Assembly: GCA_910890315.1 (NCBI GenBank)
Contig: CAJVGD010000015.1
Coordinates: forward strand, 372,001-436,000
Source: Serendipita indica DSM 11827
Lineage: Eukaryota; Basidiomycota; Agaricomycetes; Sebacinales; Serendipitaceae
DNA length: 64,000 nt
Direction: 5' to 3'
Shown: one piece after another, positions 33,959 to 52,707 of the stretch
How positions within the stretch are numbered: position 1 is the stretch's first letter
Layout of the letters: each line of letters begins with the position of its first letter
The notes under the pieces: generated by a model
What the model was told of the DNA's origin: nothing
What the model saw: the letters and a program-made list of their open reading frames with translations, nothing else
Databases searched by the model: none
Made by a program: the position numbers and the translations under genes

Positions 33959-36035
33959 TTATGGTCTCCTACTTGACGTGCTCGGATTTGCATTCTGGCG
34001 ACAGATGTGGCAAATGTTATTCTCGGCGTAGATTTCCGTGAGATTCTCGGCGGCATAGTGGCAACTGAAGAACGCAAAAGGAAGTTGTTGCGTCGTCCTT
34101 ACCCTCACAACTTCTACCATGGCTGGGCGAACTCGTTCGGAAAGAGGAAGGAAGGTTGAAGTGTAACCCGAATTGGAGAAGGATATGGGTGGCAGATTTC
34201 TTTCGCGTGACCTGCTAGTATTAGACCAGGGTAGAGTGACGCCCTGGGTGGTGAAGCTTGACGGGAGGTCTTCTCTGCTATGCAGATTGTGAATGCTCAT
34301 AGGAGCTCGGCCTCCATCAAGGAGATGCCGCACGGTACGCATCTGAGGTGCAGTCGAGGCGCTGTTGGACCAGAGCAGGTCATCCTCCAATTTGACAACA
34401 AGGCGAAGGAGATTTGGGAGAATACCACGTTTCTTGATTGCCTTGTAAAACGTGTCGCTTGGTTGCTTGGTGAGGGTGACCTTCAGCGTCTCAATCTGAG
34501 GCAGGCGCCTGTAAATCTCCTCGTACTGCTTATCGTGAATAGGCGCATGTAGTTCGAGATTAATAGGCGTCCATATACCCTCTCCGCCGTGGAAGATACT
34601 CGATACGATGCTATCGGCATCAGCGCGTTTCAGTGCGGTGACTTTGAGGCACAATGTATGCAGTTCGGGGGCTGATATAGCATTGATTTCGGAGTGAGAG
34701 GTTACGGCATGGAGAACCTGGAGGCTTGGCAGGCTAATGGAGTGTTCCGGGAGATGTGGGAGATGTCCCTCGTTAGGAAGGGCGGATTGGATCACGAGGT
34801 GCCGCAGTTTGGGCATGTGAAGCTCCTGGAGACCTGACATCGCAATCTCGCCGACACGCAGGGACCGGAGGTTTCTCAGGGAAACTCTGGACTGGGATAT
34901 AGTTTCGCCTATGAGGACATGAGCGATGCAAGTAAATTAAAGGAAATAGGTGCGAACTAGCACATCCCTCCATCTCATTGACGTCCATGTCGTCTGGGTC
35001 GAGGATTCCAAGGGGCCCACCGCGATTAGGGGGTTCCAAGGCATACGAAGGATGTCCAAGGAGCTTGTTTGAGATATCCAAGTGCTCGAGGTGCTCGCAT
35101 CCTTCGAAGATGGTGACATGGAAGGGTCTAGAGTTACCCTTGATGGTGATCTTGCGCAACTTGCGCCAAATCTTGTATTCTCTGGCCGCTAGTATGAAGT
35201 CACGGGTCATATTTCCGAGATAAAGTGATCTTAACTTGACCGTCGTGCGTTCTAGCTGGTCCAGAAGAGGATGGAAGACCTCAAAGAGACCTGGGATGGG
35301 CAATGCCGAGGTGATCATCAGAGACTCCAGGGCCGGAAAGGCCGTAGAGTCGTTGAAAAGGCCATGAAAGGAATCTTTGATGACGTGAAGGGGAGTGTCG
35401 GGGTTGATGATGAGGCAAAGGAAGGAAATCTGGCTCGAGCGTGACATAAGCATCTGGAACCTTGCCCTCCTAAACTCTGGAGTGGGAGAAGACTCGTTAA
35501 TACGGCCGACGACTAGAGTGGCCTCGAGCGGTGAGTTGCGAGCGCGCTGGATGCACGTCTGCAGGAACTTTTCGGTTGCACAGGCCATGGTACTACCCGC
35601 TTTGAGACTCGGAGGCATCGAATCCAAGGAAATCAAGATACGGCGCCAGAGTCGGGGTGTATTCTTGATAACTTCATTCAGGGTGCGACATGCCGTCATG
35701 AGTAGCGTCAAGGGAAGGTCCATGAGATGATATTCGTCCAAAATCATCGCCAGGATCTCGACGGGCATGGTCAACAGGTTGAGCGATGCTCGCCTGGCCC
35801 GAGCAGTGGCACATCTTCGAGGATGGTCGAAACCTTTGGCAAGTGTATATCGTCAGCGACGAGGCTCAAGTGCAGGCGGTAGGGCTCTCGAATACTCACA
35901 GGAGGGGTGTGGTATAGGAAGGGCTTTGGTATTCATGGTCTCGACGTGGAGTTCATGACCAGTACCGCTAGTCTCGACTTTGGGCGTGCGGTCTGCCTTT
36001 CGTTTTGAAGGAGGGGTTGATTGCTCAGCGTTCAT
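33959..36035 (-). CDS. F-box-like protein F2
   Basis: Three exons: 36035-35900, 35833-34958, 34908-33959, about 653 residues; introns 66 and 49 bases. A variable low-complexity N-terminus (MNAEQSTPPSKRKADRTPK) precedes the F-box-like block at about residues 68-112: MPVEILAMILDEYHLMDLPL, then NTPRLWRRILISLDSMPP. Then come a conserved helical block (ATEKFLQTCIQRARNSPLEA, SSPTPEFRRARF), leucine-rich-repeat-like segments (LQELHMPKLRHLVIQ, ISLPSLQVLHAV, APELHTLCLKV) and a C-terminal NNICHICRQN with a CxxC pair. Known for F-box families: adaptor in SCF ubiquitin ligases. Substrate unknown. It starts 335 bases from NWD1 in head-to-head orientation, so the two probably share a control region. Intron 2 falls at the place conserved in F3-F7. 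Confidence 0.82.
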
Positions 36036-36370
36036 GGGTCGCTGGAAATTTCGACGTTTTCTTTGTGGGGTTTAAATTCGTTATGATCATAGCTCGGGTT
36101 CAACGTGCAAGTTTCGGGCTGGCCACTAACTGGGGTCCGCCCACGAGGATGGATTGAATTGCTGTCGCTGGGAGGGTGGAGCAGAGGGCAGCCATCACTT
36201 GCTGGTCAACTTGGAGAGAATGACACGCATCATAACGAGGGCATCTCATGGGGGTGACAAATGTCAGCACGTCAGCACGAGTAGACAGTTCTCTCCAGAT
36301 CACAGCATTGCGTTTCGGGCAAGGCCCCGTGAAGAGACTGGCGGGTGCCCAACTCATCTTGCACCCATCC
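36036..36370. promoter_or_regulatory. shared divergent promoter region of F2 and NWD1
   Basis: A 335-base gap separates the start codons of F2 (minus) and NWD1 (plus). It includes a TTTAAATTCG stretch near 36071-36080 that may act as a core promoter. Assignment rests on gene arrangement, repeated at 47490-47876. No specific factor site identified. Confidence 0.5.
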
Positions 36371-50800: not shown

Positions 50801-52707
50801 CAGTCGGGGAGCCACTTCGAGGTCACGAAGAATGGGTGACGTCCGTCGCATTCTCACCGAATGGATTACTCGTTGCATCCAGCTCCTGGGATAAAACAAT
50901 TCGACTGTGGGAGGCAGAAACTGGCCAACCCGCCGGTGAACCACTACGCGGCCACGAGAGTTGGGTCAATTCTGTCGCATTCTCGCCTGATGGATCCAAA
51001 CTTGTCACAACTTCATGGGATATGACAATACGACTATGGAACGTGAAGACTGGGATGCAGCTGGGAACCGCATTCGAAGGTCACGAAGACGATGTAAATG
51101 TAGCAGTGTTCTCGCCAGACGGGTCAAGGATTATCTCCGGCTCGTTGGACAGCACAATTAGAGTGTGGGATCCGGCCAACAGCAAGCAGGTAGGAAGCGC
51201 ACTTCAAGGCCATCACGACTCGATCATGACCATCGCATTTTCGCCAGACGGCTCAACATTTGCCTCTGGATCCTCTGATGGCACCATTCGATTGTGGGAT
51301 GCCAAGGAAATTCAACCGGTAGGAACGCCGTGCCAAGGTCATGGTGATTCAGTCCAGGCCGTCGCATTCTCGCCGAGCGGGGACCTGATAGCATCCTGCT
51401 CTTCCGACGAGACGATTAGACTCTGGGACGCAACTACTGGCCGACAGGTGGGCGAGCCACTACGAGGGCACGAAAGGGGGTGTTGATGCAATTGCATTCT
51501 CCCCCGATGGCTCTCTCCTCGCTTCGGGCTCAGTTGATGCTGAAATTCGACTGTGGGATGTAAGGGCCCACCAGCAATTGACAACACCACTTCGCGGTCA
51601 TCACGATTCAGTCAACGCTGTCGCATTCTCTCCAGACGGCTCGCTTATTCTTTCTGGCTCAGCGGACAATACGCTCCGACTTTGGGACGTAAACACTGGT
51701 CAGGAATTGGGAGAACCCTTCCTAGGCCACAAGGGAGCAATCCGTGCCGTCGCATTTTCCCCAGATGGCTCGCGAGTTGTCTCTGGCTCCGACGACGAAA
51801 CATTAAGGCTTTGGAACGTGAACAGTGGTCAACCTCTGGGTCCTCCGATTCGGGGTCATGAGGGCTCCGTCCGAGCTGTCGGATTCTCGCCAGACGGCTC
51901 ACGGATCGTCTCTGGCTCTTTCGATCGAACGATTCGATTGTGGAATGTGGAAACTGGACAGCCGTTAGGAAAATCGCTCGAAGGACATGAAGATTTGGTT
52001 CATTCCCTGGCATTCTCACCCGACGGGCTGAGAATCGTCTCTGCCTCTGAAGACAAGACTCTTCGATTTTGGGATGTGCGTAATTTTCAACAGGTGGGAG
52101 AACCCCTTCTAGGTCACCAGAATGCAGTCAATTCCGTGGCATTTTCCCCAGATGGTATACTTGTCGTCTCCGGCTCATCCGACAAGACCATTCGACTGTG
52201 GAACGTCAACACTGGTCGGCAGTCACAAGAGATGCTCCTTGATCATGATCAGCCCATTGAAGCTAAAAAAATATCCCCAGAAACTCTAGGAAGGCTCCCT
52301 GACTCGAATGATGAATTGGAACTCGGTGAGTAATGACTGTTTATCACTACCTCTGTTCTTTCCCCGTCCTGACCATAGATACAATCACCTCAGGTCATTC
52401 GCAGAGTGAAGGGAACGAATTCGCCGACTCAAATACCGACCTTCGACCCGCGAACAGCACGTCGCCATGTATTTCATTACGCACCATTGCACCTGGATTT
52501 GGAGAGGGGATTCTTATGCCAGATGGTTGGGTGAAGTCATCCGGTAAATATCTCTTCTGGGTACCACCTGAGAACCGGCATGGGCTACAGCACTCACCCC
52601 GACTGACAATACCAATAAATGGCCCCCTCCGAGCGACCCGCCTGGACTTTACCAGGTTTCGTTGTGGCTCATCTTGGACCAACGTTCGACAGATTACCGA
52701 TCACTGA
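47877..52707 (+). CDS. NACHT-WD40 NLR-like protein NWD2, probably frameshifted
   Basis: Exons: 47877-48086, 48131-48287, 48335-48488, 48536-48629, 48675-50164, 50212-52325, 52379-52707; same intron positions as NWD1, and exon 4 is 94 bases in both. Order of parts: MLKL/HeLo-like helical N-terminus (RLIESILEAIQEINDNE), NACHT (Walker A CDIAGAGKST, Walker B VIIVIDGIDEC), 14 WD40 repeats, conserved tail (WVKSSGKYLFWVP). The intron at 50165-50211 is GC-AG with donor GCAAGT. Two lesions: a one-base excess in a G-run near 51475-51480 breaks WD40 repeat 9, though the frame resumes immediately through repeat 14. Exon 2 also meets exon 3 out of phase unless a weak GTCGAG donor five bases upstream is used. 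Either a recent pseudogene or an assembly error in a homopolymer. Confidence 0.75.
50430..52250 (+). repeat. 14 WD40 repeats of about 129 bases in NWD2
   Basis: The 14 units have the same 43-codon pattern as NWD1, repeat 9 being the one crossed by the frameshift. Several units match a NWD1 unit at the same position better than their own neighbours (EEWVTSVAFSPNG, EDDVNVAVFSPDG), so part of the order predates the duplication. Confidence 0.82.

What the first reader, a model, noticed from the sequence alone, without database searches (positions are those of the whole stretch)
33959..52707. Two copies of a divergent F-box-like / NACHT-WD40 gene pair
F2/NWD1 and F4/NWD2 are head-to-head pairs separated by 335 and 387 bases, and both pairs keep gene order, orientation and intron positions. 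A ubiquitin-ligase-adaptor-like gene sharing a promoter with an NLR-like sensor, duplicated as a unit, suggests a functional module. Possible roles are allorecognition or immunity, with the F-box protein controlling sensor turnover or acting as a guarded target. Seen: arrangement and domains. Inferred: co-regulation and function. I know of no description of this exact pair.
Basis: partly seen in the sequence, partly recalled or inferred. Interest (0 to 1): 0.78.

Follow-up and report, generated by a model that had tools for sequence, protein, structure and literature searches.

The report
F-box and NLR genes duplicated together
In the root-endophyte fungus Serendipita indica, a tandem array of F-box/leucine-rich-repeat genes carries an immune-receptor-like gene back to back with one of them in three places rather than two; the layout is real and best explained by local duplication, but the evidence favours neighbours that travelled together over a proven functional pair.

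Summary
The arrangement exists. The fungus is Serendipita indica, not Rhizoctonia: the window is C15:372001-436000 of a 24.7 Mb genome. F2/NWD1 and F4/NWD2 are head-to-head, 335-344 and 387 bp apart. A third pair, F7/NWD3 (448 bp), straddles the window's right edge. The three NWD genes form one supported clade (SH-aLRT 98), so duplication from one NWD ancestor is supported; the F trees fit this only weakly. The F proteins look like F-box/LRR ubiquitin-ligase adaptors; the NWDs are NACHT-WD40 receptors with about 14 repeats similar in register.

Against a dedicated module: six of nine F genes on C15 are not head-to-head with an NWD; F4's LRR exon is 91-100% identical over about 400 bases to unpaired F6 and F9 but not to paired F2; F and NWD termini share no motif; many NWD genes carry a common element just upstream of the start codon, also beside other neighbours; NWD2, NWD3 and F7 look damaged in this assembly. 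Other F-box families flank an NWD head-to-head at two further places, about what chance predicts. Best reading: a locally duplicated cluster; co-function untested.

The parts
33959..36035 (-). F2: F-box/LRR gene, paired with NWD1; 5' exon + F-box exon + LRR exon
   Evidence: protein record P0124
36036..36379 (.). F2-NWD1 intergenic region (335-344 bp)
36356..36371 (+). NWD-family 5' element in NWD1 (two mismatches to ATCTTGGARYCATCCA)
36380..41186 (+). NWD1: helical N-terminus, NACHT (37026-38717), WD40 repeats and C-terminal tail (38718-41186)
   Evidence: partial protein record P0001
41902..44204 (-). F3: F-box/LRR gene between NWD1 and F4, not head-to-head with an NWD
   Evidence: protein record P0126
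45565..47489 (-). F4: F-box/LRR gene, paired with NWD2; no counterpart of F2's 5' exon found
   Evidence: PIIN_09127 = P0123, whose model skips part of the F-box exon
47490..47876 (.). F4-NWD2 intergenic region (387 bp)
47853..47868 (+). NWD-family 5' element in NWD2 (imperfect, three mismatches)
47877..52707 (+). NWD2: NACHT (48665-50227) and WD40 array; reading frame broken at a G run near 51476-51480
53850..55795 (-). F5: F-family gene, not head-to-head with an NWD; F-box not detected by Pfam
   Evidence: PIIN_06036 = P0129
56428..58408 (-). F6: F-box/LRR gene, not head-to-head with an NWD
   Evidence: P0121
61536..63813 (-). F7: F-box/LRR gene of the third pair (partner NWD3 starts at 64262, beyond the window); reading frame split near 62841-63000
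   Evidence: P0125
5565..7133 (+). F1: distant, single-exon member of the F family, no NWD beside it

Best explanation
This is a birth-and-death array of F-box/LRR (FBXL-like) genes in Serendipita indica, in which one NACHT-WD40 receptor gene came to lie head-to-head with an F gene. Local duplication then copied the stretch, giving the order F2-NWD1, F3, F4-NWD2, F5, F6, F7-NWD3, F8, F9 (shown: order, orientation, NWD clade; inferred: that F and NWD were copied together in blocks). The F proteins most likely act as SCF substrate adaptors, the F-box binding Skp1 and the LRR solenoid binding a target (inferred from domain and fold). The NWD proteins most likely act as oligomerising STAND sensors read by a double WD40 propeller (inferred from family). 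The two kinds of gene sit together because they were copied together; NWD genes keep a family-type 5' element, and F genes appear to trade LRR segments by gene conversion whether or not they are paired. No step linking an F protein to its neighbouring NWD has been shown.
For: NWD1-3 form a clade (SH-aLRT 98), NWD2+NWD3 97, among 77 rows. F family: 10 genes, 9 on C15 and one on C17; 3 of the 9 on C15 are head-to-head with an NWD. F4 vs F6/F9 LRR exon dS 0.16/0.21 against 1.63 for F4 vs F2, while the F-box exons give 0.86/0.55 and 0.86; 91-100% identity over about 400 bases from F4 46539. The NWD 5' element: 178 matches against 26 for the reversed pattern; 34 of the 46 listed matches with at most 1 mismatch lie 851-1047 bp upstream of a listed NACHT on the same strand. 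NWD genes with that element also stand divergent from other genes, e.g. a superoxide dismutase (L041). F and NWD termini share no motif. PMC3192844 (passages) says that expanded families in this species typically lie in clusters of 2-7 genes, likely by local duplication.
Against: All three NWD genes of this clade have a divergent F neighbour although NACHT dS is 1.3-2.0 (near saturation), and F exons (dN/dS 0.07-0.25) and NACHT (0.17-0.21) look constrained; a purely passive association need not last so long. Two further NWD genes have a divergent F-box neighbour of other F-box families (C11, C33). The F trees do not resolve F2, F4 and F7, F6/F9 falls under 80, and F5/F8 may be a long-branch join, so separate arrivals of NWD genes are not excluded.
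Confidence: 0.64

Rival explanations
1. Turnover module: the F-box/LRR protein recruits SCF to its neighbouring NWD receptor and keeps its level low, as CPR1 does for plant NLRs; loss or block of the F protein would unleash the receptor.
For: F-box + LRR-like fold; head-to-head placement in three copies; plant precedent that an F-box protein (CPR1) controls NLR levels (PMC6032283, passages).
Against: F4's LRR segment is shared with unpaired F6/F9 and not with F2; the 84 other listed NWD genes have no close member of this F family beside them; no expression or binding data.
Confidence: 0.16
2. Guard or decoy pair: the F-box/LRR protein is the monitored partner of the NWD receptor, which triggers cell death when the F protein is attacked or is a non-self allele, in the manner of SEC-9/PLP-1.
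For: Fungal NLRs can watch proteins, and a STAND gene can lie divergently beside its partner gene as in het-s/nwd2 (PMC10197012, passages; PMC3321046, passages). F genes are mosaic. NWD1-3 repeats are more alike in register than out of it, as a sensor of a fixed ligand might be.
Against: No shared N/C-terminal motif as in HET-S/NWD2; no allele data; repeats are not of the highly identical, reshuffled kind that marks het-d/het-e (0.56-0.58 within-protein identity); NWD2 and NWD3 look damaged here while F4 does not.
Confidence: 0.09
3. Recurrent recruitment: NWD genes are favoured next to F-box genes genome-wide, because both belong to one stress or immune toolbox, so the C15 array is one case of a general rule.
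For: Head-to-head F-box/NWD neighbours of other F-box families at C11:351-354 kb (L036) and C33:49-52 kb (L050).
Against: Counted as loci, 2 fall within 3.5 kb (C15 array, C11; four NACHT domains in all) against 1.7 domains expected from uniform placement; 1 of 28 upstream regions sampled had a divergent F-box (read by eye, Pfam on seven ORFs), and its Pfam score is below cut-off; the C5 and C40 candidates have other open reading frames between.
Confidence: 0.09

Closest known systems
het-s/nwd2 and related STAND/effector two-gene clusters of ascomycetes (PMC3321046, passages read)
   Same: A NACHT-WD40 STAND gene next to, and divergently transcribed from, a second gene; kept as neighbours.
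   Different: Partner there carries a HeLo domain and shares an amyloid-type motif with the receptor's N-terminus; here the partner is an F-box/LRR protein and no shared motif was found.
NWD (NACHT-WD40) expansion of Piriformospora/Serendipita indica (PMC3192844, PMC4986451, passages read)
   Same: NWD1-3 belong to this expansion; F-box domains are also listed as expanded in that genome paper.
   Different: The passages read do not mention F-box genes as neighbours of NWD genes; the C15 NWDs have diverged repeats.
F-box/LRR (FBXL, TIR1/COI1-like) SCF substrate adaptors
   Same: F-box plus alternating strand-helix solenoid; F6 model matches FBXL2, TIR1, COI1, D3 and the ligase in 4i6j (FBXL3, name recalled).
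   Different: The nine homologues found are S. indica, one Serendipita sp. 396 and unnamed sequence-archive hits (7992 candidates scored); extra 5' exon in some copies.
Plant F-box protein CPR1 controlling NLR levels (PMC6032283, passages read)
   Same: Idea of F-box control of an NLR.
   Different: No binding or level data here.

Membership tests
F-box/LRR SCF adaptor | N-terminal F-box domain | tested here: met
   PF12937 over cut-off for F3 (33.9 bits) and P0125/F7 (28.1), at or just under it for F2 and F4; not found in F5
F-box/LRR SCF adaptor | C-terminal LRR-type solenoid | tested here: met
   AlphaFold2 model of F6, pLDDT 73, pTM 0.70; matches NLRP9 first and then F-box/LRR ligases at E 2.7e-05 to 4.8e-04, TM-scores 0.14-0.58 over the rows shown; Pfam LRR hits are all below cut-off
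F-box/LRR SCF adaptor | Binds Skp1 | not testable with these tools
   needs a binding assay
Fungal NWD (NACHT-WD40) STAND receptor | NACHT NTPase followed by WD40 repeats | tested here: met
   PF24883 8.2e-28, PF05729 8e-11, WD40 1.3e-171 for NWD1; NWD1 partial model matches Sr35, NRC2, CED-4 and the maltose regulator in 8bob among many AAA+ ATPases
Fungal NWD (NACHT-WD40) STAND receptor | Recognised N-terminal effector domain | tested here: inconclusive
   no Pfam hit for the two N-terminal frames scanned; helical but low-confidence model
HET-S/NWD2-type STAND/effector pair | Partner gene adjacent to the STAND gene | tested here: met
   three pairs on C15
HET-S/NWD2-type STAND/effector pair | Shared motif between STAND N-terminus and partner | tested here: not met
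   for the 3 cognate pairs, both ends of F, 234-495 of 500 shuffles reach the score
het-d/het-e type hypervariable allorecognition NWD | Highly identical, concertedly evolving WD repeats | tested here: not met
   within-protein identity 0.56-0.58; register identity 0.68-0.69, 0 of 5000 permutations; best match in register for 7 of 13, 5 of 13 and 7 of 14 units
Co-regulated divergent gene pair | Shared bidirectional promoter / co-expression | not tested
   no expression data; intergenic regions share only short matches, best 26 bp at 85%, E 0.001 (F4-NWD2 vs F7-NWD3)

The most novel reading that the evidence does not exclude
Serendipita indica uses a triplicated F-box/LRR plus NACHT-WD40 pair as a working unit in which the SCF adaptor is the controller or the guarded target of the receptor, a fungal NLR partner type that the searches made here did not turn up, with further F-box families recruited to the same role at C11 and C33.
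Probability: 0.15. Interest if true: 0.76.

Novelty: new member of a known kind. Interest (0 to 1): 0.4.

Why it matters
S. indica has the largest NLR count in the survey of PMC4986451 (passage), and what those receptors watch, or how they are held in check, is hardly known (my judgement). If the F-box neighbour were a real partner, this locus would give a concrete, knock-out-ready test of how a basidiomycete NLR is regulated. Even as an ordinary cluster it shows NWD genes carried along inside an F-box array, with frame damage, a fresh insertion and gene conversion in one place.

Tried and rejected
Rejected: Rhizoctonia/Ceratobasidium origin (proteins match S. indica at up to 100%). Two copies only (a third lies across the window edge). 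C5:1857 kb and C40:164 kb as further pairs (other open reading frames lie between, read by eye). L058 as an F-box neighbour (no F-box by Pfam). A shared F/NWD motif. Shared promoter homology between the three intergenic regions (only short matches). F phylogeny as proof that F2 and F4 are sisters: neither shown nor rejected. Rfam and tRNA scans of the window: nothing. Plasmid collection: no match.

Limits: the genome searches list only the best candidates (rows: 77, 83, 150, 150, 98), so family counts are lower bounds. The 20 + 8 upstream regions were picked by me down the lists, not at random; the second eight are only 1.2 kb long; F-boxes in them were looked for by eye, with Pfam run on seven ORFs from seven of the 28, so weak F-boxes may be missed. 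Six F-box positions of the C15 array were added by hand to the list of 150; the list was compared by eye only. The tree holds rows from the proteins and 14 fetched loci with over 440 residues of NACHT region, 79 rows less 2 near-duplicates, not every NWD gene. F4 in the trees is record P0123, which lacks part of the F-box exon. Starts and splice sites are predictions except where they match protein records; dS above 1 is unreliable.
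Full report
What is there. The window lies at C15:372001-436000 of a 24.7 Mb, 55-contig genome. Its NACHT reading frame is 96% identical, over 67% of its length, to a partial protein of Serendipita indica DSM 11827, and a spliced F6 model is 100% identical to a deposited S. indica protein, so the fungus is S. indica. Seven members of one F-box/LRR family (F1-F7) lie in the window and two more on its right on the same contig; a tenth is on C17. F2-F9 are all on the minus strand. 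The order is F2-NWD1, F3, F4-NWD2, F5, F6, F7-NWD3, F8, F9, each hyphen marking a head-to-head pair. F1, about 27 kb to the left, is distant and on the plus strand.

Checks on the reported pairs. F2 begins at 36035 and NWD1 at 36371 or 36380; F4 begins at 47489 and NWD2 at 47877; F7 begins at 63813 and NWD3 at 64262. Protein records match my reading of F2, F3, F4, F5, F6, F7 and F9, some with single differences or other exon choices; the F3 record has no named source, and the F4 record skips part of the F-box exon. F2 and F7 have a related 5' exon that I do not find in F4. NWD2's frame breaks at a run of G inside WD repeat 9, seen as a 259-base repeat spacing and in the reading frames; it may be a sequencing error or a real mutation. 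F7's reading frame is split within the F-box/LRR part and bridged in the deposited model as if by an intron. NWD3 is interrupted after its WD repeats by an insertion, C15:440605-447431, with split direct repeats of 125 and 269 bases, 100% identical between copies; a stretch like NWD1's C-terminal tail lies beyond it. By repeat layout and by motifs read by eye it looks like a Ngaro/DIRS-type tyrosine-recombinase retrotransposon (names recalled; two of its reading frames have no Pfam hit).

Duplication. In a tree of 77 NACHT regions, NWD1-3 form a clade (SH-aLRT 98) with NWD2 and NWD3 sisters (97), inside a large group of mostly S. indica rows. After itself, NWD2's best genome hits are NWD3 (61%) and NWD1 (56%), of 83 scored; NWD1's own best hits by score are other NWDs at about 64%, and NWD3's second-best is a C17 gene, so similarity scores alone do not show the clade for all three. 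On the F side F5/F8 (100/100) and F6/F9 (86/88) are sisters. Both need caution: F8 is flagged as a long branch and F5 is long too; F5's F-box exon is 57% identical to F9's but 35% to F8's, and the F6/F9 fork falls under 80 in the tree without F8. They would fit a block F-NWD-F-F copied to give F4-NWD2-F5-F6 and F7-NWD3-F8-F9, but do not prove it. F2, F4 and F7 are not resolved; holding F2+F4, F4+F7, F2+F7 or F2+F4+F7 together is not rejected (AU p 0.262, 0.269, 0.369, 0.163). NACHT dS is 1.3-2.0, so the copies are old; dN/dS is 0.17-0.21 in NACHT and 0.07-0.25 in F exons, which points to constraint, high dS being unreliable.

Are the pairs evolving as pairs? F4's LRR exon differs from the unpaired F6 and F9 by dS 0.16 and 0.21 but from paired F2 by 1.63, while its F-box exon is 0.86, 0.55 and 0.86 away from F6, F9 and F2. 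Along the gene, F4 is 91-100% identical to F6 and F9 over about 400 bases of the LRR exon (from 46539 down to about 46140) and 48-92% elsewhere; F2's F-box part is 85-95% identical to F9 over the first 500 alignment columns. This looks like gene conversion among F genes without regard to pairing, and it speaks against an F protein whose LRR is fitted to its own NWD. F and NWD termini show no more similarity than shuffles in the three cognate pairs; one non-cognate control (F2 N-terminus with NWD2) was reached by 47 of 500 shuffles.

Promoters. Immediately upstream of the ATG, NWD genes share an element close to GAGNCTGGCAG...ATCTTGGARYCATCCA (alignment of NWD1-3 and 12 other loci). The 16-base core, with up to 2 mismatches, occurs 178 times against 26 for the reversed control. 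Of the 46 matches with at most one mismatch, 34 lie 851-1047 bp upstream of a listed NACHT domain on the same strand; the other 12 may belong to NWD genes outside the capped list or be chance. NWD1 and NWD2 have imperfect versions, NWD3 a weak one. Divergent neighbours of other kinds occur: a superoxide dismutase (L041, whose NWD has a perfect element), a cellulase (L048), an MCP1-like gene (L063). The three intergenic regions share only short matches, the best 26 bp at 85%. So a pair-specific promoter is not needed to explain the layout. No expression data were available.

Is the pairing recurrent? Besides C15, a head-to-head F-box/NWD pair exists at C11 (L036: F-box gene 4907-3294 minus, PF12937 E 0.0029 below cut-off, but 39% identical to its neighbour, which is over the cut-off; NWD ATG 5117). 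Another lies at C33 (L050, PF12937 E 0.006, below cut-off). Both use F-box families other than the window's. Using 150 listed NACHT and 156 F-box positions (6 added by hand), four NACHT domains have a divergent F-box within 3.5 kb, three of them in the C15 array, against 1.7 expected under uniform placement; counted as loci this is two. In the 28 upstream regions that I sampled, one has a divergent F-box (by eye, Pfam on seven ORFs). This is compatible with chance.

The proteins. An AlphaFold2 model of F6 (pLDDT 73, pTM 0.70; 9 sequences) has an F-box followed by a strand-helix solenoid. Its best matches are the LRR-bearing NLRP9 and F-box/LRR ligases such as FBXL2, TIR1, COI1 and D3 (4i6j is FBXL3 from recall); TM-scores in the rows shown are 0.14-0.58, so this supports the class of fold, not a close relative. 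The NWD1 partial model is a STAND/AAA+ type NTPase (Sr35, NRC2, CED-4 among matches that also include ORC and RFC subunits) with a helical N-terminal part of low confidence. The WD arrays of NWD1-3 were read as 14 units each (one unreadable in NWD2, one short in NWD1); units in the same register are 0.68-0.69 identical, others 0.56-0.58, 0 of 5000 permutations reaching the observed value, but the best match is in register for only 7 of 13, 5 of 13 and 7 of 14 units. They are not the highly identical arrays of het-d/het-e (PMC1805685, passages; 85% criterion in PMC4986451, passages).

Comparison with print. The species' genome paper reports 99 NWD ORFs, expansion of F-box domains, and clusters of 2-7 genes likely made by local duplication (PMC3192844, passages); 274 NLRs are counted in PMC4986451 (passages). 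het-s and nwd2 are divergently transcribed neighbours (PMC3321046, passages). Head-to-head NLR/NLR pairs are rare in Sordariales (PMC12258605, passages); PMC9815663 has no mention of F-box (term search). Searches for F-box with NLR/NACHT and head-to-head (0 papers), S. indica with F-box and NLR (1 listed), F-box with NACHT in basidiomycetes (7 listed) and fungal NLR with divergent transcription (15 listed of 23) showed no such pair in the titles and abstracts listed or in the passages that I read; most of those papers I saw as listings only, and the library lacks most subscription papers.

Verdict. The layout is real, threefold and old, and best explained by local duplication; the two families are already known to be expanded in this fungus. 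A functional module is possible (about 15-25% over its forms) but the evidence at hand fits neighbours that travel together.

Noticed in passing
genome-wide; window 36356-36371 and 47853-47868: A 16-base element ATCTTGGARYCATCCA lies just upstream of the start codon of many dispersed NWD genes (178 matches vs 26 control; 34 of 46 best ones 851-1047 bp before a listed NACHT). It could be a shared core promoter or leader element of the NLR expansion.
   Followed up: partly
C15:440605-447431 (L018 4605 to L019 1431): A 6.8 kb insertion with split direct repeats (125 and 269 bases, 100% identical) interrupts NWD3; it looks like a recently inserted Ngaro/DIRS-type element. The same terminal sequence lies in L046, beside an NWD on C32.
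   Followed up: partly
L036 (C11:348001-354500): A second F-box array, of another F-box family, also has an NWD gene head-to-head with one member and a further F-box match downstream at C11:359-360 kb.
   Followed up: partly
window 45565-46665 with 56428-57546 and C15:451-452 kb: Apparent gene conversion among the LRR exons of F4, F6 and F9.
   Followed up: yes
L057 (C2:2628800-2631600): A WD array upstream of an NWD gene with 9 repeats that are 84% identical on average, near the 85% level used for highly internally conserved arrays.
   Followed up: no
window 5565-7133 and L021 (C17) 5258-3792: F1 and a C17 gene are 89% identical over 490 residues, a recent inter-contig duplication of a distant F-family member.
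   Followed up: no
C15:451-453 kb (F9): F9 seems to carry a short tandem duplication around its exon junction, read as extra codons in protein record P0122.
   Followed up: no
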